Source of the DNA: Agelas oroides
Lineage: Eukaryota; Porifera; Demospongiae; Agelasida; Agelasidae
Direction of reading: 5' to 3'
DNA length: 64,000 bases
Assembly (NCBI GenBank): GCA_949130485.1
Contig: OX422184.1
Coordinates: 3,204,336 to 3,268,335 of the forward strand
Part shown: one piece after another, positions 9,282-54,700 of the stretch
Layout: each line of letters starts with the position of its first letter
Numbering within the stretch: position 1 is the first letter of the stretch
Notes under the pieces: model-generated
Databases searched by the model: none
Seen by the model: the letters and a program-made list of their open reading frames with translations, nothing else
Told to the model about the DNA's origin: nothing
Translations under genes and position numbers: made by a program

Positions 9282-12200
9282 CTATCGTTGTGGTGGGGGA
9301 GGAGGAGGAGGGGGAAAGTTTTGTTGCTGTCTTGGTGGGAGGTTTTTGGTTTGGGGTGGGGGGCCCTGTTTCATCATGTCCTGACGGAAATGGAACTGAA
9401 GGAAGAACTGTTTGGTGTCTGGATTCCACTCCATCCAGAACTTCTCTTCAGCTTTGTCAACCTCTCGACTGGGGATCTGTGAAGGGAGGGAGGGAGGGAG
9501 GGAGGGAGGGAGGGAGGGAGGGAGGGAGGGAGGGAGGGAGGAAAGGGAGGAAAAGAGGGAGGAAAGGAAAGAGAAGGAGAGGGAAGGAGGAAGAGCGGTA
9601 TAGAGAGAGGAGAGGGAAGAGAAGGAGACGGAAGGAGGGAGGAAAGGGAGGGAGGATGAGGAAGGAGAGGGGGAGGGAGAAAAATAAGTAAGAAGGAAGG
9701 AGGCAAGATATAATGTATAATCAATGCTATTCTGGTGTCTCTGGCTTGTAAGAATCCCATTCCACCTTTCCTCCTCTACCTTGAAAGCTATGGTCTCGTA
9801 TGGCTCTGCTGCAAACAGGAGGTACTGCCACTGGCGGTCTGGAGGTTCCATCCGCTGCTCATAGGCTGACATGAATCTGTGACGTGGACGAATCCCATCC
9901 GCTATCTCTGGGTAGTCAATCTGTGCATGGGTCAACACACACAATGAGCATCAGTTTACATACCACACAAAGTGCTGTAAAATGAGGTGTCTGTAAACTA
10001 CCTTGTACATGTACATATATGTACACTAATAACAACAAGTACCAATCAGGTTGGAGATTATAACACATAATGCATGCTTTACAATAACAACCCTCATCCT
10101 CAGGCTTCACCATCAGAGTCAAGTAGTTACCGATCACAAATCCCTCACTATCATGCACTATTACACATAGAAAAGGTGTACCGCTGTCATCCGCTGAGTG
10201 CCATACACTGTTATCACTGTGAACAGCCACCACGCAGGCATCAAACAGGTTCTTGTTGGCATGAATCCTTCGATATGGACGTGCACATGTATGTATGTAC
10301 GGCAGGAAGGTTTTGGCCAGCGATAGATTTTGCCAGTCAGTATCCCCCGTGCGGATGCATAAAGCGGACTGTCAATCTGTCAGCAAATGTCACTCAAAGG
10401 TGATTTAGGTGAGACTGCTTTTCAGCTCATTCAACAGTCACGCACAAGCAGCCTCACAACGTAAAGTTTTGTATCTCAGAGCATGTAAACCTGAAGTGGC
10501 CCTATTCCATACATTTCCAGCTACATGTACTTCTTACTATAGCCTCGTACCTAGGCCGTATTCCATACATTTCCAGCTACATGTACTTCTTACTATAGCC
10601 TCGTACCTAGGCCGTATTCCATACATTTCCAGCTACATGTACTTCTTACTATAGCCTCGTACCTAGGCCGTATTCCATACATTTCCAGCTACATGTACTT
10701 CTTACTATAGCCTCGTACCCAGGCCGTATTCCATACATTTCCAGCTACATGTACTTCTTACTATAGCCTCGTACCCAGGCCGTATTCCATACTTTTTTCA
10801 GCTATATGTACTTCTTACTATAGCCTCATACCCAGGCCATTCATAGGAGAAATGGCCTGGGTACGAGACTCTCCAGATTGTCCAGTACCCAGACCACAAA
10901 ATCTTTGTCTGAGAATGAGACTGTGAGTAAAGCCTGGTATCACTCAGAGAGGATGTATACCACAGTTATTCAGCTACCTGCTCACCTGGAAAAACAGGCT
11001 GTGTTGGCCATTGTCCGGATCTCTCTGTTTGGTAACTGCAGTAGGTAAAACAAACTGTGAGCAGTAGCCTTGTTCCCAGGCCCCGCCCAGCTTTCCGTCG
11101 CCTGCAGTACGGAAAAGCGTCACGCGCGGGGAGAGCCTGGGAACGAGGCTATGTGAGCAGCACGCAGCCTTGTTTCCAGGCCTTAAAAAAGTGGTGAAGG
11201 GTCTGCAACTAAGGGAAACACAACGAAACCCTGGTTATTCATAAACCACAGGGCCTTGTAGATGATATATCTACATCCTGTTAGCTCTGGAAAGCCTTGA
11301 ACATTACTAAACAGTTTAATTAGGGTTGAAGGTTTTTAGACTCCCCTCGCAAATTGAAACTAAATTTTTGCAACACAAATACATTTGTACATGTAAGTAA
11401 CAGTGAATATTCACACTATAGTCCTCACAAGTATTCCACAAATGTGTCGAGTTAGCCTCGTTCCCAGGCCCCGCCCAACTTTCCGTCGCTTATAGTATTG
11501 CAAGCGACGGAAAGCTGGGCGGGGCCTGGGAACGAGGCTAGTGTCGAGTCTTGCCTAGAAGCTTAGTAGAGTAAGAGCGTGTAACTCCAATAGAAGCCCA
11601 TAGTCCGGACAAAATTATTGAACCGTACTAAAAGTAGAACACCCGGTCACATGCTGTAGCAACACAGCATTGTGCAGTACGTGTTACCATTTTTAGTACT
11701 GGTGGCAATTTCACCCAGTCTCAAATTTACAGAGTTACACGCTCTTACTCTAGCCGCCCATTCTTATGCGCTCTTGGGCATTTGGATATGGGTTCCAACC
11801 CTCCATGTCCATATCATGTCTACCTGACATTGTAACATGCAACGAATAACCCCGCTTTTGCCACCATATCACTGTCAACACACACTGTACAAAATAAAAC
11901 AGGGAAGGTCTGAGAATGAGGGTACCTGTCGTACCTTTGTAGCCAGGTCTCCCAATCTTGACAAACTTCCGCACGTCTACTCTTGGTTTCTCCTGTCAAC
12001 AGAAGAAGAGAGGAGGATCTGCATCACGTCTAGCACACATGTAACATTCTTCTTCAAATAAATCAAGACAAAGACTCGTGTTCCATGACTGTTATCAACT
12101 CTATATCAAAAGGGGCAATCATCAAGACTAGTTCATTGAAGACTAATACATGTAACTTGGGTTTCATAACCGTTATCAACTTTATAAAGCGTTTTTCAGT

Positions 12201-18430: not shown

Positions 18431-18688
18431 TTTCTGTTTTGCAACGACTCACAAATCATAGATAATAGAGCGTACGACTCTATTATCTATGCACAAATAT
18501 AGCCGGGCAAGTGCGCGCGTGTGATTGTTTTAGTCTCGTTCGCATAAGTACAGACCGTGGCTGTTGGTAGTCTGGGAACGAGACTGACTCAATCAACTTG
18601 TCTGACTTCGCGCATGCTCCGCGGGACTATTTATTCGCGAGGATAACGTTTCAACTCTGCATAATCAAGTCACATTGCTACCACAACT
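18431..18688. promoter_or_regulatory. Divergent promoter, SF3A2 / CaaX-protein gene
   Basis: Only 258 bp separate the start codons of SF3A2 (18430, minus) and the small CaaX-protein gene (18689, plus), so this stretch must serve both unless longer transcripts start elsewhere. It holds a hairpin at 18457-18491 and a TCTCGTT...AACGAGACT snap-back piece (about 18533-18585). I see no canonical TATA box. Confidence 0.7.
18457..18491. repeat. Perfect 14-bp inverted repeat in the divergent promoter
   Basis: Arms 18457-18470 and 18478-18491 (CATAGATAATAGAG and its exact complement) are separated by 7 bp. The position between two start codons makes a regulatory role possible; a dying transposon end is the alternative. 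Confidence 0.85.
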
Positions 18689-19036
18689 ATGGCTCCGTCA
18701 GTGTTGAGCATATCTTGTACGCCGCATTTCAAGAACGATGCGGAGACGGCCTGGGTGACGCAAGAATCCCTGACGACCGTTAGCCTCTGGCTCAACCCTG
18801 ATCGCGGACTGACTCTGAAGGACGTAGCTGAAACTATTGAACAGTTTGTGAACACCATGCCTGGATATTCTACTCAAATTTCGTCTTGTACTCTTCAGAG
18901 TATCGCCATTCGCGGAGAAGTGTTTACCAATAATATGTCTGCACATATGGCCCGCGACAAGCTTCATGACGGCGAGCAATTTACCGTCAAAGTCGTGCAG
19001 AAGGTGCAATCGGCTGTATGTTGTGTTATATTGTGA
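18689..19036 (+). CDS. Small prenylated protein, UBL3/MUB-like (copy 1)
   Basis: Single-exon ORF of 115 residues ending CCVIL, a CaaX box (CVIL) preceded by a second cysteine; the terminal Leu favours geranylgeranylation. UBL3/MUB membrane-anchored ubiquitin-fold proteins end in the same CCVIL. The body fits that fold: a strand at TTVSLWLNPD, a helix at LKDVAETIEQFVNTMPG, a strand at LQSIAIRGEVF and a last strand at EQFTVKVV. Identity to UBL3 is too low for me to be certain. UBL3 sits on membranes and directs cargo to vesicles; such a role here is inference. The paralogue at 25258 is about 81% identical by hand alignment. Substitutions are mostly conservative, which argues that both copies are selected. 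It shares a 258-bp promoter with SF3A2. Confidence 0.85.
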   Translation: MAPSVLSISCTPHFKNDAETAWVTQESLTTVSLWLNPDRGLTLKDVAETIEQFVNTMPGYSTQISSCTLQSIAIRGEVFTNNMSAHMARDKLHDGEQFTVKVVQKVQSAVCCVIL

Positions 19037-20678: not shown

Positions 20679-21050
20679 CTGGCTACCTCTTTTCAGCGAG
20701 ATAATAATATGCCTTCTCTACCAGTGCACTCTACCATCCTCCTGCCATAGTCAGACAGACTCCACTCTAGACTCCACTACCTGCCGAGGGATACTGCGTG
20801 TGTAGCTGAAGGGAACTACCACTGGAATCCATAGCTTCGAACATACACGAATACACATAATTTGTTTAGGTCGCCTCGAAAACCTAGCCTAAGGTAAGGC
20901 TGACTGCATAGTCAGCTTCAGCCTTCCTGGCCCACTTCTCAGCCTCGACACTCGCCATGCCAAGGGTGGGACCATCCGCGGCAGGGGGGGGGAACAGGTA
21001 TGGCTGCGATATTCGGTCCGGGGGGACCATGTATTCTGCTAGGACGGTCC

Positions 21051-21143
21051 TAGTCTCGTGCCCAGACAACTTTTCGCCGAGCGGGAAAGTTGTCTGGGCA
21101 CGAGGCGGGCTCGCGCGAAAAATGCGGTCTGGGAACGAGACTA
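21051..21143. repeat. Snap-back family member, 93 bp
   Basis: The ends are TAGTCTCGTGCCCAGAC and GTCTGGGAACGAGACTA. A self-complementary interior (CCCAGACAACTTTTCG / AAAGTTGTCTGGG) lies to the left. GGACGG flanks both sides, a possible eroded target-site duplication. Confidence 0.7.
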
Positions 21144-21474: not shown

Positions 21475-21790
21475 TAGTCTCGTGCCCAGCCGGAAATAAC
21501 CTACGGAAAATCCGTCTGGTAACATTGCGCGCCTTTCTTGGGCTTTTGCACACGTCAGCAGGGTTTGAACGCGGCCATATATGGACGTTCTCACCTCTAC
21601 ATGGCTTCAATTATCACCAATTAGCATCCGCACAAGCGCTAGGGCGCCAGTGGGCCGCCCGAATAATTGGACATACTACAATTTGATTGGCACGTTCAAA
21701 TAACTCCGTCGTAAGTAGAAAAGCCCCAGAATCGAGCCCAACGTTACCAGACGGATTTTCCGTAGGTTTTTCCGGCTGGTCACGAGACTA
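21475..21790. mobile_element. 316-bp MULE-like MITE with 9-bp TSD, copy 1
   Basis: It starts TAGTCTCGTGCCCAGCCGG and ends with the inverted counterpart; the ends match over about 50 bp (including CCTACGGAAAATCCGTCTGG). Direct repeats AGCGAGGCT flank it at 21466-21474 and 21791-21799. A nearly identical copy lies at 51566-51881, which implies recent movement. Confidence 0.92.
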
Positions 21791-27299: not shown

Positions 27300-27799
27300 T
27301 TTATGACATCTAGAAAATCGCTAAGGCTGTATTGTCCTTCTCAAACAGTGCTGAAATCCGTTTGTCCTTCTCAATAAATCTCTTCTTTCAAGGAGGTGCT
27401 CTGCCACCCAGTTCCAGCTGCTCAAGCTAGTTTCATCTCTGATGATCACTGATGTGGGTGGTTGTTTGTGGCCCCTCACAATCATAGTAGTTCCATTGTG
27501 ATAGTTTGTAGCTGCCATTTACCCAGGTTCGATCAAAGTATGTTACAAGATCGTCCACGCGATCCATAGTGGGTGCCTCTTGCTGTGTGCCCTGCCAAGC
27601 TAGCTAGCTGCATGAATACTGGTGGACAGAGTGCAGTTGCTGCCATCTTCTGGACAGACTTCTTCAGTGCACTGTCCTCAGCTCTGTATTCTTCCTGGAG
27701 ACCAAGCGACTGCACCTTTTGCCAAATAGCCTGCATGAAGTGGTAGTAACACCCAGCCTTGTGAAATTCGCATCTCCAGAATACAACAATCAGAAACAT
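27300..27799 (-). pseudogene. MULE-type transposase fragment
   Basis: The minus-strand frame at 27799-27533 reads GCYYHFMQAIWQKVQSLGL, the typical segment of MULE transposase domains in which a Cys-Phe/Tyr-His-Phe box precedes QAIW. After a frameshift near 27560 the sequence continues with a YFDRTWVNGSY block and a W..YD..GPQTTTH block, where intact members read TNNH. Stops follow near 27450. The catalytic acidic residues upstream were not found, so the copy is dead. It is the only possible source family in the window for the elements with 9-bp target duplications. Confidence 0.75.
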
Positions 27800-28483: not shown

Positions 28484-28490
28484 CTGTGGC

Positions 28491-32595: not shown

Positions 32596-33264
32596 TAGTC
32601 TCGCGTGGCCACACCCCGTTCCGCAAGAGAAGGAAGGGGTAGTCTCGTGCCCCGCCCGCGCGCGCCTCCCGGCGAGAAACGGTCTGGTGAACGAAGTCGA
32701 ATTTCTTGGGCTTATTACCCAAAACGGGTAATGACCAATGAGATCGCGAGATCGGTAATTATTACGTAGCACTTCCCTTACAACAGTAAAATTTGTTCAT
32801 ATCTATTCGAGTATCCGTACCTTTTTTGAGCGGGTTGGCCGCAAAATGTTTTGATCGTTGCTAGGTTACAATGTCGCAAAAGCTTGCGCTAGCCCAAGAA
32901 ATTCGACTTGGTTCACCAGACCGTTTCTCCTCGTGAGAGGGTGGGGTCTGGGGACGAGACTAGGGAAGGGGTCTGGTAACTTCTGTTACAGCAGTTTGTT
33001 GCCTCGCACTGTGGAGTGCGTTCCAATCACAGCGCAGTATTCGGTCACATGAGTGCTGTTATCACAACTTCAATAGGAAATTACAAGGTGTAAATCAACT
33101 GTGAAACCACAAGCAGCTGCTTCGTCAGTCTTCTTGAGATAATTATGCGGCCATAGCGCTTAAGCAATGCGAGTAAATGAAATTCCTGTGCTACGAGCGG
33201 CTGCAACGAAGGTTACCAGACCCCTTCCCTCTCTTGCGGAACGGGGTGTGGCCACGCGAGACTA
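32596..33264. mobile_element. Outer MULE-like MITE with 9-bp TSD, split by a second insertion
   Basis: The ends TAGTCTCGCGTGGCCACACC and its complement are inverted over more than 40 bp. Perfect direct repeats GGTAGCTAC flank it at 32587-32595 and 33265-33273. A second element (32640-32962) has jumped into its left inverted repeat. Confidence 0.93.
32640..32962. mobile_element. Inner MULE-like MITE nested in the outer one
   Basis: TAGTCTCGTGCCCCGCC begins it and GGGGACGAGACTA ends it. AGGAAGGGG (left) and GGGAAGGGG (right) are the target duplication with one change. The interior matches the elements at 43802-44116 and 48671-48992 in inverted orientation (shared GAATTTCTTGGGCT and ACGTAATAATTACCGATCTC). 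Confidence 0.9.
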
Positions 33265-33732: not shown

Positions 33733-36700
33733 ATGGTACGGGTCGGGCAAATTGCTGGGGGTGGTCGAAAGAAGCTCAAGGTTCGAGAGCTGGCCAAGGT
33801 CTCGCTGAAAGGATGTTGCGGAAAGGTGAAGAAGATCCGGGTTAGTAAACAGATGTTGAAGATCTACGTCTCCTGCTTCATCTCCCTGGTGAGAACTAAT
33901 ATATTAGTTGACAGGTTCGGAACTAGTGTAGGTAATGATCAAAGAGAAGGTTATCTGTTACCAACTTGAGCTTGGAAATTAACTTGCCGACGTTTCGACT
34001 GAATGCTCCAGTCGTCATCAGGGCGAAAACTTTTACCCTGATGACGACTGGAGCATTCAGTCGAAGTGTCGATTGGAGCATTCCGTCGAAATGTTGGCAA
34101 ATTGTTTTCCGAACTCAAGTTGGTAACAGATAACCTTCTCTTCATTTATGCAGAAGCCAACTGAGAAGCCACTGATAAGTGTAGGTAATGCACGTTTCAG
34201 TCTCTACCATTTAGTTACATGATACATTTGCTTCTTTTTTTTTTTAAGTTTCTACATTATACAGTAGGCCTGAGAAAATTATGCCTGAATAATTTTGAGA
34301 GAATATTAGCAAGCATTTGCATGCGGAAATAGGGGTGTGGGATAAAAATTGCAACCACCAGACTTTCACTTTGCTACATATGTGACTGCAAAAATGGCTG
34401 AGAGTTATATAGGTACAGCCAAGTTCTGCAGCATCTGAGTGTGTTCTTCTAATACTAAACTGTTTCAGATCACAGCAGGACTCAAGCCTGCAAAAATGTT
34501 CAGAGTCTGATTGCATGTTGATGAAAATAACAGCAAGATTTGCGTAACTCTGGACGCTTGATAGGAAGAAGGTGAAAAGCTAGTAGTTGCTTTGAGTTGA
34601 TCCTGAGGTCCATGGCTTGAGTTTACCTGTGCTCTGAGCACATAGATACGACCACCAGGCAACCATCAGCTTTCACAGTCCTTGATAATACATTCAGTAG
34701 CCTTGTTCCCAGGCTCTCCCCTCACCCTGATGAAAAATAAAAACCCTAACCCTCCGTTTCTATTTTTTGTCGGGGCGAGGGGAGAGCCTGGGAACGAGGT
34801 TACAATTTCAGTGACTGCTGGCTTTTTGCTTCTCTCTGATTGTCTCGTAATATCAAATCATACCACTTAGCAAAGTGACTAATTGTGCCACAAAAGTATC
34901 GCGGACAATAGTACTTCTCATCCAGTTAAGTTATATTCCAAGCAATGAATGCGCTAATAACTTACTGACACTCATGCTATCTCTCATTCCTTCCTTCCCC
35001 TTCCCCTTCTCCTTCTGCCTCTTCTCCTCCATCCTCTCTCCTCTCTTTTTCCTCCCTCCTCCTCCCTCCTCTGCTCATCCCTTCTTCCTCCTCCCACCAC
35101 CTTCATACTTCTCTTTTCTTTCCTCCTCCTCCCCTCTTCCTCCCTTCTCTCCTCCTTCCTCCTCTCTCCCCTCTCCCTCTTCCCTCCTTCCTCCCTCCTC
35201 CCTAGCTTGCCAGTGCCTTTGCCATCACAATGCTCTTCCCCTTCCTGCCCTTCATGGTGCAGTTTCTACGTCCTGAGCTGAAGGAAGACAAAGAGTCCAT
35301 AGGTGGGTGTAACCACGCTTTGTGCTTAGCCTCGTTCATCACAACTTTTGTAGTTTGAATGAATAGCTTTTCTTACTGCAAGTGACAAGACTGGGAATGA
35401 GGATAACTTTGACTTGTCCTTGTTCCAAGGCCTTCACTGCCTCAAGTATTTAAATGTCAGTTAGACAGAAGTTGGTACCCAGGGGGCAGTGCCTGACGAA
35501 GAAACTTGAAGGTCTTTCTTGTAATGTGCGTTTAAGTGGCTGGATTTCCACATCCTGATTGAAGATAAAGAATCTTGGTGGGTGTAGCTGATGCAAGCAT
35601 GCCTCTTGCTTAGTCTTCAGGCTTTCACCACAGCCTTTTTTTGTAATGTCCATTCAAGTTCTGGAGGCCAGAGTGTTTGGAAGGCAGAATGAATACAGCT
35701 TGTTTGGAAAACTGGTGACTGATCAGCATAAAATATTACAGTTCAGCACTTCACTCCCATGTGTCTACCTTCTGTTTACCTCACCTGACATCACCACATG
35801 TAGCAAGATCTTCCAGGTCTTTATTTTCGCGCTGGAGGGAATGAAGCTACTATTTCAGTGTTCCATGGGTCTAAGTTTTGTTTCCATAAAATGATTTGTA
35901 GCTTGTACATGCATATAACATATAACAAGGAATCAAACTATGTACCCTTGTATAAAGGCTACATGGGAGGCTCCTCCCATGTAGCCTTTATACAAGACGA
36001 GAATAACATCAATCACTTTTATAGGAAACACATAAAACGCACTGCATGTGATGCGTGTTGCATAGTGGGTGACTCATAATATCTAGGGAGGGTTTCGGAG
36101 AGATGTGGTTAATTGATTACAATAGTGACATATTGCTATTTATTTTGTCCACCAATAGGGAAGTATGCTGGTATTGTTGCATCGTCCATGTTTTTTGGAA
36201 GATTCTTCGGAAGGTGAGCTGCTCCTGATACATGGTAGCCTTGTTCCCAGGCCGTTCCCGCCTCCAGTTTTTGATCGCTTCCAGTATAAAAACGGAGGGG
36301 GAAGGCCTGGGAGAAAGAGTCACGTGCGTGACGTCAGGTAGACGTGAGGGGGGCGGTGCCCGATCATTGTAATTCACAAACTTTGCGTTGATCAGCCTCG
36401 AGTCTACCATACAACGAGCTGTATTGACACTGTCTTTCGAATGTTACAGTCTTACAAGAAGGATCTCGAGATTCTTCGTCAGGCACCGCCCCCCTCACGT
36501 CTACCCTCATGTCTACCTGACGTCACGCACGTGACTCTTTCTCCCAGGCCTTCCCCCTCCGTTTTTATACTGGAAGCGATCAAAAACTGGAGCCTCGAGT
36601 CTACCATAGTAGCCCAGGCCTGGGAACGAGGCTTCTGCTAGCATGGTAATTAAGACCTTTGTACTGTATTCATGACAGGTATAAGATTATTCATATCCAT

Positions 36701-39700
36701 GATGATATTCATACAAAACCCATACTCAAAACGTATGGTTTTTGCAGCACTATAAATAGTAGGATGTGACTTCTTCTACTGGCCCGTGCGGGCCAGTATA
36801 ATAAAAAACAACCAGCTAGCCACAAGCGTGGGTAGTACTAGTACTAGGAATCAATCATAATGTTGATATTGCCTACACCACAAAAATGTGGCAAACAAAC
36901 CCCAAAAAATTAGCTTAGGCACCCTTAGGAGGGTTGTCTAAGCTTTTTAGTCGAATGCATCATGCAGCAAGTGTGAGTGAGTTAGCTGTTTACTAAACTG
37001 GACAGTTTATTAACCGCATTTTAATGGCCTGGGAACAATGTAATAACAGTGTCCTATTGTTATAACTTTATTCATGATCAATTATTTTGATGATATAATT
37101 CATTGCTCACACTATTGCACTCCACAGTTTCTGTAAATCAGGCTGAGAGTTTCTTTTGCGGCTCTTCTTTTCTCCGAGACAAAATCTTAAATTGAAAGCT
37201 TCGATTTGAATATAGGCTCCTCCCCAGGCCCCACTCGAGAAATTGGGAAAAGGGCCTGCTCCCACTTGCAAAATTTCTCATATGTGTATTATGCGACAGC
37301 AGATGTCTTATGTACATGTGATCACATGATAGCCAGTTACTGTTGACAATGACGTTACAGAATCAGTGAACCTATCTTTGCAAGAAATGACTAGTGGCCT
37401 ATTCCGGGAGGCTACAGTGGTGGCCTATCAAGCATAAATGCGCCAATGTTTCTAAATTTTGTGATCTACGAAAAGTCTGGTAGCCTCAATCCCATTTTTA
37501 TACTTGGAAATGGATTCATCTACCCCAAATGAAGACTGCTTACTCAGCACATACAGGGGTTTTTATAAGTGTGACCTGGCCCTTTTCCCAATTTTTCGGG
37601 TGTGGCCTGGGGACGAGGCTTTATTGAATATGCCACCTGCTGTGGAGGAGGTTATGAAACATCCAGAATAAGTCCACTGCAGTGTGCATGCGCCTTGTTG
37701 CAACAACCTTGAACATATTAACATTTTTTGCAGTGGATAAATTTTCGTGTATTTTGTGAGTTAGCCTCCATTAACGAAATTGGAAACCATGAAAAGCAGA
37801 CTGTCCTTACACATGCTACATGTGTTAGTATGTGGTGCACGCACTGTGCTAGTGCGACGTACAAAATTACAACTGTGCAGCAAGCTTTTTCACACTGTGT
37901 AAAATATTATCACCATGGAAATTTCAGTGTATACAGTCTTTTTTATAAACTGCGGCAAGTTGTTTATCATGAGGTCATCTGGAAGTCTAAAACACACCTC
38001 AAAATGCTTCCAGTTTCCTAGAACTTGGTAAATGGTACTCTCTAAGATTGTGTCATCTTACTTAAAGTGATGAAATGATGTGAGTGTACAGGAATCATTG
38101 TATGTACTGTAAGTTACATGAAAATAGCAGTATCACAGATTGTACATCATTGAACATCATCTATTCTGTGGTTCCAAGGAAATTACAAGGCGGACTGGAT
38201 GTGACAAACAGAACTCCATTTTGTGGTGTGTATACTGTGAGAAATCACTTTTAGAGGATACCTTGGTTAATCCCTAGTTTCAGTTTCATATAACTAACCC
38301 TCCCCATCTCACCAAGGTAAAGTTGACTGGTAATAGGTAAATTATGTAGTCAGTTAGCGTCGTTCCCAGTCCTCATTCTACAGCTATTGTCACTTGCAGT
38401 ACAAATGGCATGGAGAAGGCCTGATGACCATTGTCAAGGTCACTCAAGTTACTTATTAAATTGTATTGTAGCTTCGTTCATGGGAATGAGACTGGAATTA
38501 TTTATGCAGCAGTAGGTATAGCTACCCATGATATTGATCAATAGCATACAAAAAGGAACAATCTGTGTGTGAAGTGTGAAGAACCAGTAGCAAGCTATTG
38601 TTAAAGTGACTTCAACACTAACCTCTGGAGCGGTTGGCTGCAGCTGGTCACGCTCCAGGTTCGTCATACAGCTCCTAGCACTCTGCTACTGTTAACTTTC
38701 ACTCTTAGTTCCACTTGAGTGTCCTTTTTCTTGTATTCTGTTCTTTTCATCTTTGTGTATATAAACATCAAGATAAATGTGACGGATTAGAACCTTGACT
38801 GATGTATTTACTGATGATTTGCTGTTTCATGTGTTAACTTTGGTAGAGCCCAGACTCCTGTCTAGACATTACTCATGCTAATCTAGAGGTGTGATTTTGG
38901 TGTTATATATACACGCTATGTCTTTGCTATAATAAGAGTTACTGTGAGCTGTCTTGAACCGTTAAGTGTGGTATCACTATCGCCTTTGGCTAGCTAGTGC
39001 GCTCAACTGGAGCAGAGCGGGCGTTACATGAACATTCTGCATGAGGTCCAGTCAGCTTGGTGCATTTACTTTGTGGTGTGGCAAGACATATTGAAGTTAT
39101 GTGTGTGTCAGACATCATGTGATAATTCTCACCAGGCCTCCTCCGCTCTGTTCGTACTGCAAGTGACGATAACTGTGGTGGAGGACTGGGAACGAGACTA
39201 CCACTTGCCAATGTGGGTGGGTGTCTGGGAATGAGAACACAAAATGTTTGGCATCACTTTCCCAGGCACACTGTCCTAGCCTCATTCCCAGGCCTTCCCT
39301 GGCTCCATTTTTTGATCACTTGCAGTATGCAAAAACTGCAAGCAATCAAAAACTGGAGGCGGGGAAAGCCTGGGAATGAGGCTACACTGTCCAGGTTCAA
39401 ATATTCCTTCCACTTTCAGCTTAGTTTGCTTGTTGCTGTTACTTTCAGCTATACACCTCTGCAGCACTTCCACTGCTACTGCTGGAGATATAGTTCAGTG
39501 CACGTAGCTAGACACCGTCTACTCTAGATTCATGAAATTTTCACTGTAGATAGATTTGTGCTCCCTTCTTTCTCCTGTGCCTGCAGCTAATTGTGTGGGC
39601 ACCTCCGTATCTGGTAATTAAGTGTATTCATAACAGTTGTAAGAGTATTCATATCCATGATGATATTCATACAAAACCCATACTCAAAATGCACGATATT

Positions 39701-42700: not shown

Positions 42701-45700
42701 GTTGACTGGTAATAGGTAAATTATGTAGTCAGTTAGTGTCGTTCCCAGTCCTCATTCTACAGCTATCGTCACTTGCAGTACAAATGGCATGGAGAAGGCC
42801 TGGTGACCATTGTCAAGGTCACTCAAGTTACTTATTAAATTGTATTGTAGCTTCGTTCATGGTGTCCTGGGAATGAAGCTGGAATTATTATGCAGCAGTA
42901 GGTATAGCTACCCATGGTATTGATCAATAGCATACAAAAAGGAACAATCTGTGTGTGAAGTGTGAAGAACCAGTAGCAAGCTAGTGTTAAAGTGACTTCA
43001 ACACTAACCTCCGGAGTGGGTGGCTGCAGCTGGTCACGCTCCAGGTTCGTCATACAGCTCCTAGCACTCTGCTACTGTTAACTTTCACTCTTAGTTCCAC
43101 TTGAGTGTCCTTTTTCTTGTATTCTGTTCTTTTCATCTTTGTCTATATAAACATCAAGATAAACATTCTGCATGAGGTCCAGTCAGCTTGGTGCATTTAC
43201 TTTGTGGTGTAGCGAGACATATTGAAGTTATGTGTGTGTCAGACATCATGTGATAATTCTCACCAGGCCTCCTCCGCTCTGTTCGTACTGCAAGTGACGA
43301 TAACTGTGGTGGAGGACTGGGAACGAGACTACCACTTGCCAATGTGGGTGGGTGTCTGGGAATGAGAACACAAAACGCTTGGCATCACTTTCCCAGGCAC
43401 ACTGTCCTAGCCTCATTCCCAGGCCTTCCCTGGCTCCATTTTTTGATCGCTTGCAGTATGCAAAAACTGCAAGCAATCGAAAACTGGAGGCGGGGAAGGT
43501 CTGTGAATGAGGCTACACTGTCCAGGTTCAAATATTCCTTCCACTATCATCTCAGTTTGCTTGTTGCTGTTACTTTTCGCCACCGCTACTGCTAGAGATA
43601 TAACTCAATGCATGTAGCTAGATACCACCCACTCTGGATTAATAAAATTTCACTGTAGACAAGATTTTGTGCTCCCTTCTTGCTTCCAGTTTGAAAACAG
43701 GTATCAGGAACCTTAACCTCCTACAATGTAGCTCATTGCATAAGTAAGCAAGAGTTCTGAATGGCTTCTAAGTGTTCATTAGTAGCTAAGAGGCCTATAA
43801 CTAGTCTCGTACCCAAACCCCACCCTCTCACGAGGAGAAACGGTCTGGTGAACCAAGTTGAATTTCTTGGGCTAGCACACACTTTTTCAACAGTGTAGCC
43901 TAGCAATGTTTGCACAAAACCCACTCCAAAAAAGATACGGATACCTGAATAGAGATTTTAAAATCTTTACTGTTGTAAGGGAAGTGCCACGTAATAATTA
44001 CCAATCTCCCAGTCTAATTGGTTCTTACCACTACTGGGGAATAAGCCTAAGAAATTTGACTTCGTTCACCAGACTGTTTCTCGCCAGGAGTCACACACGG
44101 GCTGGGCACAAGAGTAACCTATAACAAGATTTGCGGTGCACGCGCTGTGCCGGCGTCAGTGTGCGGTGCACGCGCTGTGCCGGCGTTAGTGTGCGGTGCA
44201 CGCGCTGTGCTGGCGTTAGTGTGCGGTGCACCCGCTGTGCCGGCGTCAGTGCACCCGCTGTGAAAGTCAAAACACACCTTCCAGTTTCCTTAAATGGTAC
44301 TCTCTAAGATTGTGTCATCGTACTTGAAGTGATCAAATGACATCGTTGTAACACCTTAATATGACTTACCTGAGTGTACAGTAATCAATGGGGAATCCAC
44401 TATGAGTTACATGAGAATGAGTTACATGAGAATTTATAGCAGTATCACAGATTGTAGTTCTGTTTGAACATTATCTATTCCGTGGGTTCCAAGGAAAGTA
44501 CGAGACAGATTGGATGCGAAATATTTAACAGAACTCACTTTTGTGGCATCACATGCCACACTAGTGCTGTATACTGTAAATATGGTAGAAACCACTTTTA
44601 GAGAATACCTTGGTTAATATACCTTCCTCTTTAATCTAAGTTTGCTTGTTGCTGTTACTTTCAGCTATCTGCAGCACTGCCACTGCTACTGCTAGGGATT
44701 AGCCTCGTTCCCAGGCCCTCGCCCAGCTTCCCGTCGCTTGCAGTACGCTTAACTGTACATCAAGCGACAGGAAGCTGGGTGAGGGCCTGGGAACGAGGCT
44801 TGCTAGGGATATAGTTCAATGCATGTAGCTAGACACCACCCACTTAATACGTGATTCTGTGCTCCCTTCTTGTCTCCTATGCCTGCAGCTAATTGTGCGG
44901 GCACTTCCGTATCTGGTAATTAATTAAGGCCGGTTGTACTGTATTCATGACAGGTATAAGATTATTCATAGCCATGAGGATCAACCAAGAGCTCTTGCCA
45001 CAAAACCCATACACAAAGTGTATGGTATTTGCAGCACTATAAATAGGAGAGTGCGACATTTGCTAGTAGGCCTGCTGGCCAGGCCAACTATTGTGAAGAT
45101 ATTCACAGGTACAACTGCTGTACAGTCAGAATGGCACCCATACCACCAAAAATGTGGCAAAAACCAAAAACCCATCTTAGGCACCCTTGGGAGGGTTATC
45201 TAAGTCAGCCAACTGCTGTGAAGATATTCACAACGCTATCATGTGATAACAGTACCCTACTTTACAACTTTATTCACAATCAATTATTTATTGTTATGAG
45301 AGTAATATGACATTGTACTCTTGGCCATAAACACTCCACATTGAGAGTTTGTTTCACCAAAATGCAAGACAGATCTTGAATTGAAAGCTTTGGTTTGAGA
45401 CTATTGAATATACCACCTGCTGTGGAGGAGGTTATGAAACATCCCGGGAATAAGTCAACTGCAGTGTGCATGCACCTTGTTGCAACAAATTAGAAACCAT
45501 GAAAACCATGTTCTTACACATGCTACATGTGTTAGTATGTGGTGCACTGTACTAGTGCGACTTACAAGATTACAACTGTGCAAACCTTGTGCGTTTTTAC
45601 ACTGTGATATATTATCCTGTGAAAACTGCAGCAGGTTGTTTATCATTAGCCTCGTTCCCAGGCCTCCCCCGTTTTTTGTTCTTCGGTTGCGTTCAGTATA

Positions 45701-48700
45701 ATACACGGAAGCAGGAAAGCAGCGAAAAACGGGGAGGGCCTGGAAACATGTATCATGTGACTGGCATTCGGTGGATGCGAGGTGGACGTAGGGGGGGAGG
45801 GGAGGGGCGGTGCCCATCTTGCAAACTTGTGTGCAATAAACCATAGAGCGAGTTTCTTTCCGGTGAAGTTGAGTACTGTCGATCTCATGAACGTCCAGGG
45901 TCCGGGCTATCGTTGGAGCGCTCGATGATGAACTCTAGTACGTTATTTGAACGTGGACCCCTCCCCCCCTACGTCCACCTCACATCCACCAGACGTCAGT
46001 CACGTGATAGGTGTTCCCAGGCCTTCCCTATTTTTCGCTGCTCTTCCGCTTCAGTGTATTATACTGAACGCAAACCAAAGAACAAGAAACGGGGGAGGCC
46101 TGAGAACAAGGCTAGTTTATCATGAGGTCATCCACAGTCTGAAACACACTCAAAATGTCTAAAGACAGTAAATGAATTTGAACCAGAGTTCCCTTAGCTC
46201 TGGAGACAGAATCTTTAACCACTAAACCATGGTGCATTGTTTATTCATTAACCCTTTAGATACTAGTGACTCCATTTGAAGTTGTCAGATTTCATCATGA
46301 TGATGTGACTGGGTGCAATTCGTGTGGGAGAAAGGGTGGGGCAGGGTTTTGGGGCAGGGGAAGATCACAGGGTGATGGAAGGTGTACTGACACTGTTTAG
46401 GGATTTACCTATCTAGACTAAGATTGATTTTCTATTGTTAGTGAACAGGACATTCATTCACTGGGTGGGTGCGCCATGGCACTAGCCAATATACACTCAA
46501 AATGGCTGTTTCTTGCTTCCTCTGGCCTGTGTATTGTTCATGTCACCTGGCTCTTTTCTTGCATCTGTGGTGTAAAAGCATGCACAATGACATCAGTGCA
46601 TGATAAAAATTCTGAAGCTGTGGTAGCAGAACAGCAGAAGTTTGTTTCCAAACTGTGTGACTGTGCCACAAAGCAGAATCACAGGATGGCCACTTTGTAC
46701 ACTTATTTGGCCTGTGTATTATTCACGTCACCACAATTGTTTTCTTGCATCTTGTAGTGTAATGTGGTGTAATGGTGTATAGTGGTATAATGTGGTGTAA
46801 TGTGGTGTAATGTGGTGTAATGGTGTATAGTGGTATAATGTGGTGTAATGTGGTGTCAAATCACACACATTGACATCATCCAGCTATGTGTGGGGAGCTG
46901 TGGCAGACAGGAAGGGGAGGAAGCCAGTCATCATCACCAGCTGTTTGCTCCTCGGTCTCTTCTCGGCTGCTTTTGGCTTCAGTGTCAACTTTGCAATGGC
47001 TGTGCTATTCCGGTTGGCAGTAGGACTCACAAACGGTAAGCAGTGTGATGTCAGATGCATTGGGCCTGCATGTATGTGTATACACTACCCTTCCTACACT
47101 TATTCAAGCAGTGCTGTCTGTCCATCTCTTTGACAGTGTTGTCTTAGTAAATGCGTTTTTTTTTCATTTAGAGAAGGTTATCTGTTACCAACTTGAGCTC
47201 GGAAAATAACTTGCCGACGTTTCGACTGAATGCTCCAGTCGTCATCAGGGCGAAAGTAAAGAAGTGTGAACAAACGTTGCTATTTATAGCCATGCACTCA
47301 TTGAGGATACACGTCATTGGAGGTCAAAGGTCAGTGAGGATTGCTCCTCCCTCCCTGCCTTCTCATCACAGCAGTCCACAGCAACCAGGGACTTCCAGTC
47401 CTCCATCTCGGTTGAAGCGCTATAAATAGCAACGTTTGTTCGCACCTCTTCACTTTCGACCTGATGACGACTGGAGCATTCAGTCGTAACGTTGGCAAGT
47501 TATTTTCCGAGCTCAAGTTGGTAACAGATAACCTTCTCTTCATTTGTGCAGAAGCCAACTGAGAAGCCACTGAAAATGTATTAGTATAGTTGGTTTCTTC
47601 TGGGATGTTTTAGTTTAGTTACAGTTTCCAGTTTGGCCAATAATTTCATTTCTCCATCTACCCAGGCCCATTTGGAAAAAAGGTTTAGAATTTTGCAAAC
47701 GGATCTGGGAATCCGTCTGTCTGTCTGTCTTCCATCTGTCCATCTATCTATTTAGCGTTTAGAAAGTTTCTCTGAAATCGGAAAAAGAAACTCTGAGAAC
47801 TGAGAAGCCACTGAAATGTCCTTTCATTTGTTAGTCCATCTGTCTGTCTCATGTCCTTGTGGTGATGCACGTGCTGACTGTGATCTCCACAGGTGTAGTC
47901 GGTACAGTGAAGGCAGTCATTTCTGAGGCATCTGACGACACCAACCAAGCATTTGGAATCTCATTAATATCGTGTGCATGGGGATTGGGGCTAATCATTG
48001 GACCTGCTGTGTCGGGAGCCATTGCTGATCCGATTGGCCAGTACAACCTCAATATTTCAAGTAAGCTGTCTCCTCCTCCTCCTCCTCCTCCTCCTCCTCC
48101 TCTTCCTCTTCCTCCTGGCCAGTACTATACCTAGTTATCAAGTGTAGATTCATAAGGATCTTGTTCGTTATGTCCTGAACAGTGTAGTAGATTCTTTTCA
48201 GCTATTTATATATTACATGTGCATCATCATCATCTTAGAACTAGATAGTACTCATAGAATATGTATTAGCCTATTTTTTCGTTTTGGTTTTTTGCTGACA
48301 ATGCAGACTTCTAGTTGTACAGGTGTATGGAGCAAACATTTGGAGTCTGAATTTTTCGTTATCAATGTAGTGCATACTGTAGTACATGGGATCAGTTCAC
48401 CATGCATGCTTTTTTTGCCATTTAGAAGGTCAAACTCTCTTCCTTTTCCTTCTCCTCTTTCTCCTCCTACTCGCCTTCTTCTTCTTCTCCTCAGATGCAG
48501 CAATCCATGGGTTCCTCACAAAGTTTCCCTACTCCCTCCCATGCATTGTGAATCTTCTTCTATGTGTGGTGGGTGCAGTGACCACCATGTGTCTCTTGCC
48601 CGAGACACTGGGAGTGACAAAGTAGGTTTGAGGGGTGTGGTCAACTAAGAGTGCTGCTAGAGGTAGCATCCAGTCTCATCCCCAGACCCTACTCTCTCAC

Positions 48701-51700
48701 ACGGAGAACAGTCTGGTGAACTAAGTTGAATTTCTTGGGCTAGTGCACGCTTTTGCGACAGTGTAACCTAGCAACGTTCAAAACATTTTGCGGCCAACCT
48801 GCTCAAAAATGGTACGGACACTCAAATGGAGATGAACAAATTTTACTGTTGTAAGGGAAGTGCTACGTAATAATTACCGATCTCGCAATCTCATTGGTCC
48901 TTACCACTTTGGGGTAATAAGCCCAAGAAATTCGACTTTGTTCACCGGACCGTTTCTCACCAGGAGGCACGTGCGGGCTGGGCATGAGACTAAAAGAAGC
49001 AGTGGACATGTTTTATTTATCTGGGAAACCCTACAGCCTATCGGAAGAGCCAGGTATCGCTGGCTGTAGTTGTCGATCGGACATTTACCTTGGGGGGTGT
49101 AGAAGTGCATGCATGCTTATTCATTGATCATCGCCGCATAAGTTATTTTTTTTCCCATGTTAAATTTTCACGGTTGATCTCAACGACGAAATTATTTTAA
49201 CCGCGAAAGTTTCCTGATCAAGTGATTTTCTACTGGTGTTCATACCACCATGATATATACATGTACTTCTGCAGAATTCACAGAGCCCTAAACTTTGCTT
49301 GCAACACCATTTTGGTTCTTCTCTTCAGGAACAAGAAGAAGGATGAGCTGTTGGATGTAAGGAGTGATAACAAGCAAGATGAGGCTTCCTCCTCTTCAGC
49401 TAGTGAGGAACAAAATGCAACTACTGACTGCGAAGACGTGGACACAGGTAAGAGTGATACTGTTTGTGCTGCAACATTTTGTGAACTTTGCAAGTGCTTA
49501 TACAATTGCGGATACAGTTATTTATGCGGGTACAAATTTTCACGAAACAGGCCAAAATTTGGGTTTCAGAATTTTCGTGGTCAGTGAATCTGGGACGGAT
49601 TGAAACGCGGTTCGCTCACTTTGTACGTGGACAACAAAAATTTTGTGGTTTTAACTTTTGACTTGCGAAGAATGCGAAAATAAATCACTCACGAAAATTA
49701 CCAACCATATGGTATCAATTTTGTATGAACCAGTACTTTTGACTCTTGTGTGCCGTGGGAGGGCCCGGCCAGCATATTTGTAACCACACTCACGTGTTGT
49801 TACATGCATTTCACTTGTAAGCACATATTTACTATTAAGTGATAGTCGCTGTGTAAGTTGATATAAAGCTTACACCAAATGTACATGTGTACCTCACTGT
49901 TAGGAGCTCATTTCCTTCCTGTGGAGATATAAGCATATGTGCTTAACGGTACCTAAAAACGGCATAAACGCAAAAGTTTCTCACAAGCAAATTATTGTCA
50001 CATTACAGTAAGTCATTCCCAGGCCATTGTTCATCTCCCCTTCATGGTCTGGGAATGAGACTGACTAAGATTGCATGGTAGCTCTGTTCATGCTTTCAAC
50101 CACTAGAAGCAACGATGCATGACCCTAATCTTACACAGGTGATGGTAACACTACTGATGTGGACCTAGGAACACTAGGGAGAAGACCCTTTGCAATGAGA
50201 GACGATAATAGGGGCACAGACAGTAGGAGTCCAGAGGTTTCTGTGACACTTGAAACGATTGCGGAAACCCCAGATTCTGGCATCGTGTCTTCACTAACTG
50301 ATACAACCAAGAGCTCTTGCAGTCTTGATTCATGGACTTCTCCACACAATGACAGAGGAATTAACTTGGATTCTCACACAGGTGGCAGCAGTACAAATAC
50401 CATGGATGAAAGCCCATATTGTCCTACTGAAAATACAAATACATGTAGTACTGCTGCTAAACCAACTTCTGGAGACGGTGCGGCAATCTGTACTTTTATT
50501 GGTGTTACTAGGGGTGATGACGAATCGGATTCAAGCGATGATTCACCAACTAGCCAATCAGATTTAAATGGAAAACAACACTTGTTGGCTGGCGATATTG
50601 AAGAAGTGGATTTGGGTGAGATGAAGTTGGAAGCAAGTGACAAAGTCGATACAGACACTACTAGAACTGGAGAGAGGAAGAAGACAGCTGAATCTGGTGG
50701 AAAACCAACTCGGAAAGTACGTCGATCAAGCTCATTTTTGATCCCTTTCTTCAACAGACGGGAGAGTTTTACTGTGTCGTTTGTGAAGCCATCTCAATCA
50801 TTGTTACGTCGAAAAGCAGAGTTAGAATCTAGAAAGGGAGCGGCCAAGGAGGGAGATGAAGTCTTAGAGGAGGAGGAAGTTGAGATCAAGAGTGTTGGTG
50901 ATGGTGGTGAGGGTGGTGATATGGGAGGTGGTGAGGGTGGTGAGAGTGATAGGGATAGATTGCTGGAAGAGGAGGAGGTGTCTTGGACAAGAAGGCTGAT
51001 CAAAAAAATAGCACGATCAATATTCAATTCCTTGTTGGATCTGAAACTGTTTTTGTGGTGAGCAGTCATTTGCAGCTAACACTGAGTTTCTACAAACTAC
51101 ACTAGCTATTGGATGTGTTTTTCTGCATGCTGTAGTGTCACAACACTATTTTGCACCTATAGGGACACATAGCGTGACTGCACTCTTTGCCCACTTATAT
51201 ATACAGGGAATGCCATTTTTTTAATCATTCCTCTCATTTCCTCCTTCCCCTTGACCTTCCTTTCTGTTTCTCATCTCCCTTTCTCCTTACACTCTCAATT
51301 TCTCCTTCCTCTCTCTTTCCTTCTCTCTCTATTTCTCTCCTCTCTCTTCCCTTCTTTCTCTCCTCTCCTCTCCTCTCCTACCCCTACCTTTTTATGTTTC
51401 CTGCCCTCCCACTCTGCCTGTTACTCACACTCATTCTCACAGTAATAGGACATCCTTTTTCTCAATATTGGCCTATTGTGTGTTCTCATTTGCCGTGATT
51501 GGATTTGATGAAATCTACTCAGTTTGGGCAGCTACACCTCCATACTTAGGTAAGCACCGGCACTTTAGTCTCGTGCCCAGCCGGAAATAACCTACGGAAA
51601 ATCCGTCTGGTAACATTGCACGCCTTTCTTGAGCTTTTGCACACGTCAGCAGGGTTTGAACGCGGCCATATATGGACGTTCTCACCTCTACATGGCTTCA

Positions 51701-54700
51701 ATTATCACCAATTAGCATCCACACAAGTGCTAGGGCGCCAGTGGGCCGCCCCAGTAATTGGACATGCTACAATTTGATTGGCACGTTCAAATAACTCCGT
51801 CGTAAGTAGAAAAGCCCCAGAATCGAGCCCAACGTTACCAGACGGACTTTCCGTAGGTATATCCGGCTGGTCACGAGACTACGGCACTTAGGCTACAGTG
51901 GAACTCCTATTAAAGGACACCCCTGAAATATGGATACCTGGTTAATCAGGATGAGTCTCAACTTTATATAAATACATATTGTTCTCCCCCTGAAATAAGG
52001 ACACCTCAGTAATCAGGACAATTATTTTGGTCCCAAGGGTGTCTGGATTAGAGAGGTTCCACTGTAGGTGCATACCGTAAAATCGGGATAATAGGCACCC
52101 ATTTTAATTACATCAACCACATCGCGTTCATAAGCACCCATACAAAAATAGGCACCCCACTTAAAAGGCACCCGTTACCGCGCAAACGGAAGTGAATTTG
52201 CTGAGTCGGCTTTTCGAACTTACAGCTAACTTTCGCCACTGCACTGTCTACATCCGATTGTAAGCGAGCTATTGACACGGGATAAAAATCAAACTTTAGG
52301 CAAGGCCTCTTGATAAAACATATCCAGGAATTAGCCAAAACCTTTCACAGATTCATTACCATTAGGTAGTTCCAAGCACTTTACATTGGTGGGCGGGGTT
52401 GGCAGCAGTCGATCAATTGCCGACTGAATCTGTGGTTCTAGAAAAGCTACATGGGACAGGAGAAAAAGAACCTAACATATCACTTGTTCTCACACACCAG
52501 TACACTACTAGAATATTACATTCATTTATTAGCACCCCATGAATATAAGCACCCCATGATTATAAGCACCCATTCTGGCTGCTAATTTCATAGGCAACCG
52601 GTGCTTTATCTCGATTTTACGGTATGGTAGTACAAGTACAATACATGTGTAGATGAAGGACTGTTTATCTCATGTAAGTGGCACAGGGTTAACCGAAAGT
52701 TCTGTCTATCTGTCTGTCCAATGAAAAGTCAGGATTAAATAATTGCTAATTTCAACAGTAACATTTAAAAATTGGGAGGGAAAATTCCCACACCTCTTCC
52801 GTTTTTTTTTTTTATTCTTCAGTTTGCGTTCAGTATTATAGTGCATGCTCTTCCACTTCCATATGAATACAAACCGAAGAACAAAAATGGGCGAGGCCTG
52901 GGAACGAGGGATCTCATTGTTCCTATGATAGCAAAGCAGCCTGTGGTATGTCTCCTCGAAGATATCTATTTTTGTGTTATCTTCACTGTAGGTGGGCTGG
53001 GATTTTCTCTGAGTGAGATTGGTATTTCCATGGCCATCATTGGGGTACTCCTGGTCCCTCTCACTCTCCTCCTGTTTCCAATGGTATGTCTTCCTTCGTA
53101 CCATAAGACCAGCCGCGTGACTGCATTTTGCATTGTGATACCTGGTAGCAGTCCCCATCTCCCAGTCACCCCAGCACAGCTGATATGAGGCCTGGCATTG
53201 GTTGAAATGTGTCCTGCACAGTGGGTGACTTTGCATAACATCTAGGCCTTGTTTTAAGGGAGATGTGGTTCATTGATTGTTCATGCATGTACATCTGAAT
53301 GTAGATTGCGGAGACAATTTATCATTAAAGAGAAATTATTCACATGTGGGCGAACAAATAGACTTGGTTGTACTTTGCTGATACTTTGAGTTTTGTTTGA
53401 AATTTACTGGCAAACATTCTAGATAGTTTATCGTACTTTTAATTAAGTTGTGCAAAGTAGTGCAAGTCATACATGTCTGAATGTACAAAGAATTAGGAGA
53501 TTTGCATATCACTGGAATGAATATCATGACTTCAGTGTGGTTATACTTGTGCTGCATATACATGTATATTATCATACGTCTAACTCACGCTAATGTATGG
53601 GAGTCAATGGGGAAGCGTCTGAATGTGCAATAAAATCATCACCATAGTCGTTTGTTGCTGTTGCCGTTGGTATTGTTACTCGTGCTGTGCACTTGTAACA
53701 ATACAGACAGCAACAAACTCGTGATACTTTCTGGTATAGCTTTGTACTGTGGTGATACTTATATGATACAGACATGTTAATATAGCTTGTTTTCTATGCA
53801 TGCATATGGAGATATTTATATATTGGATACTTGATCTCACATCTCTGAATTAGCTGGAAAAGCGTTTTGGTGCAATCAAGTCCTTCCACATCAGCTGTAT
53901 CCCTGTGATGGTCACCGCTATTCTCCTACCCAATCTCCACTACCTTGTTCCATCTGGACAGTAAGTTCACTCGTAGTAGCCTCGTTCCCAGTTCTCCACC
54001 ACAGCTATCGGCACTTGCAGTATGAATACTCTTACTGCAAAGCGATGCTAGCTATGGTGGAGGACTGGGAATGACGCTACCATGAGTTGTATGTTCCAGC
54101 ACAGTGGAAACTCTCTAAGGCGGACACCGTAGCGACCACCGCTGTGTGTCTGCTGTTGGGAAGTGGCATATTTCCGGTAGGTATGGCAATTTATGCTCAG
54201 ACTATGAGGCTACTGAGAAAATCACCATAGAGAGGAACTGGACTGCTAAAGAAAGACATGCAAACACTACTACATTGTATTTTGAAGCAGTGATTATTGT
54301 TTTTCAGGTTTAGCACTGCTCTAATAAGAAGACGCCAGCTTTCAGGTTACAGATGAACTGTATGGAGGCTGCACAACACTACATATGGATTATAAATGCA
54401 TGTGTATACTAGTATGCATTTCAGTGGATGGGTCAGCTCAAGAGCGCATAAGAACGGGTGGTTAGAGTAAGAGCGTGCAACTACGTAAAATTTGAAAGTG
54501 GTTGGAATTTACCTTGATTACTGTAACATGTATGCATAGTTGCACGTAGATTGTTGCTAAGCATGTGACCGGGTGTTTTATTTTTAGTACAGTTCAACAA
54601 TTTCAACCGGATTATGAGCTTCTATTGGAGTTACACGCTCTTACTCAAGTCGCCCGTTCTTATGCACTCTTGGTCAGCATTATATTACACATGGCTTTGT

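What the first reader, a model, noticed from the sequence alone, without database searches (positions are those of the whole stretch)
11065..54079. Large family of snap-back elements with TAGYCTCGT ends and 8-9 bp target duplications
At least eighteen elements share the terminus TAGYCTCGTNCCCAG and its complement, but their stems differ. Some are 87-105 bp near-perfect hairpins; others are 315-670 bp with long inverted ends. Seen directly: 9-bp duplications at 11065-11151 (TGTGAGCAG), 11453-11540 (GTGTCGAGT), 21475-21790 (AGCGAGGCT), 32596-33264 (GGTAGCTAC), 44700-44801 (GCTAGGGAT) and 45647-46114 (GTTTATCAT), and 8-bp ones at 39277-39384, 43802-44116 and 51566-51881. 8-9 bp is characteristic of Mutator-like transposition. 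What is unusual is that stems of unrelated sequence share only about 15 terminal bases, as if the transposase needs only the tip and each subfamily arose as a new palindrome.
Basis: partly seen in the sequence, partly recalled or inferred. Interest (0 to 1): 0.85.

Follow-up and report, generated by a model that had tools for sequence, protein, structure and literature searches.

The report
Sponge hairpin transposons sharing 17-base tips
A genome that is probably a freshwater sponge's is littered with small mobile DNA hairpins that share little more than their 17-base tips and a 9-base insertion scar, and longer ones seem to collapse into ever shorter hairpins at a short repeated half-site in their ends.

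Summary
TAGYCTCGTNCCCAG occurs exactly 31,292 times in the 259-Mb genome (reversed control 0). Tip pairs carry 8-10 bp duplications, mostly 9 (17 of 23). For two families the flanks of 10 copies each were read: 20 of 20 show a 9-bp duplication. Two paralogous sites without the 44700-44801 element exist. Shared sequence ends at position 17.

Corrections: 32596-33264 is two nested elements; 43802-44116 has a 9-bp duplication with one mismatch; 39277 and 43408 are copies within a segmental duplication.

The unlike stems have a simpler origin than proposed. Many ends are modules: tip, variable stem, inverted half-tip GYCTGGT. That inner site is a direct repeat of the opposite tip's core. A 62-bp hairpin equals the end of a ~585-bp element up to GTCTGG plus 11 bases of a tip. 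Other hairpins look like joined outer half-ends with progressively lost centres.

The duplication length fits Mutator-like transposition. At least 119 MULE domains exist, but none was found inside these tips. Closest known: Tm1, Tetris/DAIBAM, Muta1. New variant of foldback/MITE elements.

The parts
11065..11151 (.). 87-bp hairpin; end module of the 394-bp family closed by a second tip; 9-bp duplication TGTGAGCAG
11453..11540 (.). 88-bp near-perfect palindrome; arms like the outer half of the 394-bp family's ends; 9-bp duplication GTGTCGAGT
21475..21790 (.). 316-bp element with ~73-bp inverted ends; 9-bp duplication AGCGAGGCT; same family as 51566-51881 (97% identical)
32596..33264 (.). Outer element with variant tip TAGTCTCGCGTGGCC, 9-bp duplication GGTAGCTAC, split by a nested element
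32640..32962 (.). Nested 323-bp element of the 43802 family; 9-bp duplication with one mismatch
39277..39384 (.). 108-bp hairpin, 8-bp duplication CACTGTCC
43408..43515 (.). Copy of the 39277 hairpin within a segmental duplication, same duplication
43802..44116 (.). 315-bp element, 9-bp duplication with one mismatch (GCCTATAAC/ACCTATAAC)
44700..44801 (.). 102-bp near-perfect palindrome, 9-bp duplication GCTAGGGAT; family sampled genome-wide
39481..39489 (.). Paralogous site lacking the 44700 element (GCTGGAGAT); a second lies near 43583 (GCTAGAGAT)
45647..46114 (.). 468-bp foldback element with ~156-bp inverted ends, 9-bp duplication GTTTATCAT
51566..51881 (.). 316-bp element, 8-bp duplication CGGCACTT
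21051..21143 (.). 93-bp element whose two ends match the two ends of the 410-bp family; flanking 9-mers differ at 3 places
34698..34802 (.). 105-bp hairpin with paired tips; flanking 9-mers differ at 3 places
53977..54079 (.). 103-bp hairpin with paired tips, no duplication recognised
63304..63402 (.). 99-bp element with paired tips, no clear duplication (9-mers differ at 4 places)
10498..10838 (.). Tandem array of a 56-bp unit containing the tip

Best explanation
These are non-autonomous cut-and-paste transposons (MITEs and foldback elements) mobilised in trans by one or a few related Mutator-like transposases that recognise the 17-bp tip TAGYCTCGTNCCCAGRC and cut the target with a 9-bp stagger. 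Shown: the tips, the duplications, sites without the element, several dispersed families that share little but the tip. Many longer members (300-800 bp) have end modules of about 45-92 bp: tip, variable stem, inverted half-tip GYCTGGT. Because the inner half-site of one end is a direct repeat of the core of the opposite tip, loss of the interior at that repeat leaves a single module closed by two tips, a hairpin of about 60-90 bp; other deletions would join the two outer half-ends into a near-perfect palindrome, and further loss of the centre leaves little more than two tips (40-58 bp). The junction at GTCTGG is shown for one daughter (62 bp) and suggested for another (87 bp); that the route is general is inferred. 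Derivatives keep the tip and so can stay mobile; stems look unrelated because the parents differ outside the tip. Also inferred: the enzyme's class, and that the deletions arise during gap repair or replication of the hairpin.
For: 31,292 exact tips, 0 for the reversed pattern. Duplications; 20 of 20 copies of two families, all 9 bp. Sites without the element. Conservation falls from 1.9 bits at position 17 to below 0.35 at 18-50 over 23 elements in 10 clusters (positions 1-15 were selected by the search pattern). Half-site: 50 of 165 tips followed by GVYCTGG within 130 bp against 279 of 5600 random places; T-type module ending GTCTGGTGAAC 326 + 322 exact, control 0. Parent and daughter: with the 62-bp element plus 20-bp flanks as query, 40 of 350 first-look candidates were scored: itself, 7 covering it with ends within 11 bases of its own (92-97% identical), and 32 that stop at element position 51, right after GTCTGG (96-100%); 18 of the 32 form 9 inverted pairs spanning 565-587 bp. 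87-bp element against the ends of a 394-bp element; that family has 2516 first-look candidates, 40 scored, with inverted ends of mostly 84-92 bp. Centre loss: 759 C-type palindromes of 38-68 bp, control 0; of the 19 with letters 16 are distinct, base 10 agrees between arms in 15 of 16, arms agree past position 17 for 4.5 bases on average against 1.1 between elements. MULE domains: at least 119 matches; two MULE-bearing stretches have inverted ends with exact 8-bp flanking duplications (L042, L045).
Against: No element holding both these tips and a transposase was found: none among pairs 1.5-20 kb apart in the 29 sequences held, around 20 of 119 MULE matches, or in one 4.2-kb stretch. MULE stretches whose ends I could see (L030, L034 group, L042/L045) have other ends. 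199 of 222 tip pairs show no duplication at the thresholds, and of 26 pairs of up to 70 bp only 6 (4 independent) do with up to two mismatches in 9. Some short palindromes spread as passengers: all 40 scored places of the 76-bp L014 element include its flanks (one starts at base 3), and L004/L005/L008 share flanks. The half-site junction is clear for one daughter only, and the 87-bp case has an extra 9-10 bp indel.
Confidence: 0.72

Rival explanations
1. Several transposon families with anciently shared tips, each moved by its own transposase; the common tip reflects ancestry, not one enzyme.
For: C-type and T-type tips differ partly in concert (base 4 with base 16: 77 C-G, 33 T-G, 19 T-A, 7 C-A); little is shared beyond position 17; duplications of 8, 9 and 10 bp occur.
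Against: The two families sampled genome-wide, one C-type and one T-type, both give 9 bp in 20 of 20.
Confidence: 0.25
2. The very short palindromes (40-58 bp) are not mobile: they are what remains when longer inverted-repeat insertions lose their centres in place, or passengers in larger repeats.
For: 16 distinct sequences in 19 loci, some looking like successive losses; passenger status of L014 and of L004/L005/L008; only 6 of 26 pairs of up to 70 bp have a duplication.
Against: 12 identical copies of one 40-bp palindrome on 9 contigs (their flanks could not be read, so passengers are not excluded); the 62-bp element in 8 places bounded near its ends; an exact 9-bp duplication at the 45-bp L026 element, though loss in place would keep that too.
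Confidence: 0.4
3. hAT- or P-type elements, whose duplications are 8 bp (duplication lengths recalled).
For: Some 8-bp duplications (4 of 23); foldback forms occur in the P superfamily (Galileo, start of the abstract of PMC3573991 in a listing).
Against: 0 of 20 sampled copies give 8 bp. I did not search the genome for hAT or P transposases.
Confidence: 0.05

Closest known systems
Tm1, Mutator/Foldback family of root-knot nematodes (PMC3169594; abstract, section on TIR motifs and part 1 of the discussion read)
   Same: 9-bp duplications; composite inverted ends with conserved and variable motifs; MITE-like derivatives
   Different: Tm1 ends carry 1-9 units of a ~14-bp motif and unequal 7-bp outer motifs, and a transposase-bearing copy is known; 61 elements analysed there. 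Here equal 17-bp tips, an inverted half-site, 31,292 exact tips, no coding copy found
Tetris and DAIBAM of Drosophila virilis (PMC4079207; abstract and part 1 of the discussion read)
   Same: Two elements alike at their ends; 8-10 bp duplications; end repeats grew into satellite arrays; coding copy not found
   Different: Ends with ~220-bp tandem repeats; no bare-tip hairpins in what I read
Muta1 and other MULEs of Aedes aegypti (PMC5225508; passages read)
   Same: 8-9 bp duplications, palindromic terminal motif, many derivatives sharing ends that are often truncated
   Different: Autonomous and active, 145-bp ends with nine 12-bp repeats
MITEs reported from the sponge Amphimedon (recalled; a search of the library found nothing)
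   Same: Short non-autonomous elements in a sponge
   Different: Not compared: no sequences at hand

Membership tests
Mutator-like (MULE) superfamily | Target duplication of 8-10 bp | tested here: met
   4, 17 and 2 of 23 are 8, 9 and 10 bp; 20 of 20 are 9 bp
Mutator-like (MULE) superfamily | MULE-type transposase encoded by an element with the same ends | tested here: inconclusive
   at least 119 MULE domains in the genome; 20 loci and one 4.2-kb stretch read, none bounded by these tips; about 98 not read
Mutator-like (MULE) superfamily | Long inverted ends (over 100 bp in most families; not universal) | tested here: inconclusive
   ends of about 72-92 bp in the 410-bp and 394-bp families, ~156 bp in 45647-46114, about 17 bp in the shortest; in Aedes 12 of 14 MULE families exceed 100 bp and 2 are under 60
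Foldback (FB) elements | Element made mostly of inverted arms that snap back | tested here: met
   74-86% of bases paired in the five 87-108 bp elements; longer elements are only partly so
Foldback (FB) elements | Arms built of tandem repeats | tested here: not met
   the rows list no array within the TSD-bearing elements of the window; arrays of tips exist outside them
MITE | Short, inverted ends, uniform duplications, high copy number | tested here: met
hAT / P superfamilies | 8-bp duplication (recalled) | tested here: not met
   0 of 20 are 8 bp; 4 of 23 are

The most novel reading that the evidence does not exclude
A 17-bp tip is the whole substrate requirement: bare double-tip palindromes of 40-62 bp are themselves mobile, and an inverted half-site inside each end makes internal deletion so easy that the genome keeps producing new minimal hairpin families, and tandem tip arrays, from any longer element that carries the tip.
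Probability: 0.35. Interest if true: 0.65.

Novelty: new variant of a known kind. Interest (0 to 1): 0.5.

Why it matters
It offers a concrete, testable route for the birth of MITE families: a repeated half-site inside the inverted end that turns long elements into hairpins at a predictable junction. The size series from about 800 down to about 40 bp would let one measure how short a cut-and-paste substrate can be. Thousands of strong hairpins in an animal genome also matter for genome stability and annotation. A 44-bp palindrome with perfect tips on a contig filed under a Cycloclasticus symbiont of a Poecilosclerida sponge, and probably host DNA, suggests that the tip is old or widespread in sponges.

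Tried and rejected
One enzyme proven: rejected as a claim, no autonomous copy found. Looked for pairs 1.5-20 kb apart with these tips and matching duplications in the 29 sequences then held: the only one spans the segmental duplication itself. MULE loci: those whose ends I could see carry other ends. The multi-copy group represented by L050 joins an ALS2CR8-like and a MULE domain and shows no convincing inverted ends in 4.2 kb. Viral contigs: no hit for one C-type short-palindrome pattern. Rfam: no match in the window at gathering scores. The tip is in no paper of the library; a search for smallest or shortest MITEs gave nothing useful. Sponge mitochondrial hairpin repeats (PMC2800124, passages): the strings TAGTCTCG and TAGYCTCGT do not occur in the text; not pursued. 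A covarying mini-hairpin inside the tip (base 4 with base 16) was considered; the association is loose and may just mark two lineages. The 45-bp L026 query found 16 other places with ends near the element's, but about 34 of its 45 bases are the common tips, so I do not count it as one family. The count of T-type short palindromes did not complete.
Full report
Setting. The window is G000:C2:3204336-3268335 of a 259.3-Mb, 141-contig genome. Contig sizes seen (32.7, 26.2, 19.4, 12.6 Mb, down to 6.8 Mb for C23) and the window's GC of 43% resemble the published 23-chromosome Spongilla lacustris assembly (31.14, 22.15, 17.78, 13.56 Mb, down to 6.79 Mb, GC 42.5-44%; PMC12141999, passages), but total and single sizes differ. 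I infer a freshwater sponge near Spongilla; no marker gene was compared.

Observation. The pattern TAGYCTCGTNCCCAG with up to 2 mismatches occurs 72 times in the window against 0.57 expected, and exactly 15,404 + 15,888 times in the genome, with 0 for the reversed pattern. Twenty 10-kb stretches taken at round coordinates on C1-C16 (2,898 N in all) hold 71 such tips with up to 2 mismatches, reversed control 0, so the window is about three times richer. One stretch, L017, has 16 of the 71, mostly from a tandem array.

Duplications. Of 222 tip pairs under 1.5 kb in 285 kb, 23 are flanked by duplications at the thresholds used: 4 of 8 bp, 17 of 9 bp, 2 of 10 bp. With one flank shifted by 3-22 bases the mean is about 2.1, and none is exact at 8 bp or more against 14 observed. 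Dependence: L004, L005 and L008 share flanks; 39277 and 43408 are one insertion in a segmental duplication. A looser run on 355 kb gave 31 rows of 883 pairs against about 4.8 in the control. I then took 10 further copies each of the 410-bp family (40 of 508 first-look candidates scored, full or nearly full length, 93-100% identical) and of the 102-bp family (40 of 832 scored). I chose high-ranking copies, passing over one that matched only 1-408 in the first and, in the second, C4:268708 and a cluster of repeated places on C18, and read 20 bases outside each end. All 20 have a 9-bp duplication, 17 exact. One repeats flank and duplication of L006, so 19 are independent. The element at 44700-44801 lies in a repeat with two paralogues in the window that lack it and hold one copy of the 9-mer in altered form, GCTGGAGAT and GCTAGAGAT.

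Anatomy. Ends of 23 elements in 10 clusters, weighted by cluster, agree to position 17, TAGYCTCGTNCCCAGRC, then stay below 0.35 bits to position 50. From the rows I left out weak or repeated ones (L004 184, L005, L008, L020 7509, L025 7787, L027, L041, 37213, 43408) and added 32596. The elements were found through positions 1-15, so only 16-17 and the drop are independent of the search. Downstream of 165 tips, GVYCTGG occurs within 130 bases in 50, against 279 of 5600 random places. In printed elements it often reads GYCTGGTRAAC or similar, an inverted half copy of the tip core CCCAGRC; the exact T-type module occurs 326 + 322 times, control 0.

Origin of the stems. The 87-bp element aligns with the end module of the 394-bp L047 element, apart from a 9-10 bp indel, and parts from it after CCTGG, where it runs into a full tip. 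The 62-bp element L032:2203-2264 is the cleanest case: of 40 scored places (350 first-look candidates), itself, 7 that cover it with ends within 11 bases of its own, and 32 that stop at its position 51, directly after GTCTGG, at 96-100% identity; 18 of the 32 form 9 inverted pairs spanning 565-587 bp, and 14 stand alone in the list. So it equals the end of a ~585-bp element up to the inner half-site plus the last 11 bases of a tip. The inner site of one end and the core of the other tip are direct repeats, and deletion between them would give this product. Near-perfect palindromes such as 11453-11540 fit two outer half-ends of the 394-bp family joined. Genome-wide, 759 C-type palindromes of 38-68 bp have exact tips, control 0. 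Letters were printed for 19; 16 are distinct; base 10 is the same on both arms in 15 of 16, and arms agree for 4.5 bases past position 17 on average against 1.1 between elements. By eye, sets such as 68/55/46 bp and 64/53/45 bp (the last L026) share the outer stem and differ by loss of the centre.

Are the shortest mobile? For: 12 identical copies of one 40-bp palindrome on 9 contigs, the 62-bp copies, an exact 9-bp duplication at the 45-bp L026 element. Against: the L014 76-bp palindrome is a passenger, 40 of 40 scored places including its flanks (one from base 3); loss of the centre in place would also leave duplications; and of 26 tip pairs of up to 70 bp only 6 (4 independent) have 9-mers that agree to within two mismatches. 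I leave it open.

Enzyme. The 9-bp duplication argues for a MULE. The genome has at least 119 PF10551 matches (150 of 194 candidates scored), some with long open frames. Two MULE-bearing stretches (L042, L045) have ends GAGTCATTCCCAG and GGAAACGTCCCAG with subterminal repeats and exact 8-bp flanking duplications; they share the TCCCAG core with the tips, perhaps by chance. That scan had no control and also gave one candidate each in L039 and L041. No MULE bounded by the tips was seen in 20 of the 119 loci, nor in one further 4.2-kb stretch.

Other genomes. In the collection of 84,980 prokaryote species genomes a C-type short-palindrome pattern occurs in one contig, LWTN01000169.1, filed under a Cycloclasticus symbiont of a Poecilosclerida sponge. 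It encodes a protein of RING/B-box/NHL look and one of seven-helix receptor look (my reading of the translation), so it is most likely host DNA. Its 44-bp palindrome has no clear duplication. In viral contigs the same pattern has no hit.

Comparison and verdict. In how it works this is closest to Tm1, Tetris/DAIBAM and the Aedes Muta families. For membership of the MULE superfamily it meets the duplication test; the transposase test is open. New in degree and detail: a common 17-bp tip across many otherwise unlike families, an inner half-site that explains hairpin birth in the case examined, and forms down to about 40 bp. The parts of papers that I read do not describe that half-site route; my searches near it covered open-licence papers only.

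Noticed in passing
window 36665-39573 and 39623-43684: Segmental tandem duplication, 84-90% identical in three blocks, with an insertion of about 250 bp in one copy and one of about 1.3 kb in the other.
   Followed up: partly
window 41172-41583: Palindromic repeat with AAAAGTATGCAAACAAGGTAGG arms; the same sequence lies in the ~200-bp inverted ends around a MULE match in L034. The apparent duplication GGCATGCCA is probably part of the repeat.
   Followed up: partly
window 27623-27754: Fragment of a MULE transposase, 43-51% identical to the L030 and L045 proteins over 41-44 aa.
   Followed up: no
G000:C1:566340-567288; L017:6635-7050; window 10498-10838: Tandem arrays containing the tip: spaced mostly in multiples of 15 bp, in 38-bp and in 56-bp units, as if the tip seeded satellites.
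   Followed up: no
L050 (G000:C9:5396500-5400700): Gene joining ALS2CR8-like and MULE/ZSWIM-like domains; several equal-scoring matches elsewhere; no inverted ends found.
   Followed up: partly
L029 (LWTN01000169.1): Probable sponge host contig filed in a Cycloclasticus bin.
   Followed up: partly
L018:3560-3849: 290-bp inverted structure whose two ends are each a 47-bp tip palindrome.
   Followed up: no
window 9285-9950 (-), 57781-58362 (+): Open frames matching SF3A2 and RING/TRAF-type zinc fingers.
   Followed up: no
window 15564-16066: About 33 copies of a 15-bp repeat inside overlapping open frames of 188-269 aa.
   Followed up: no
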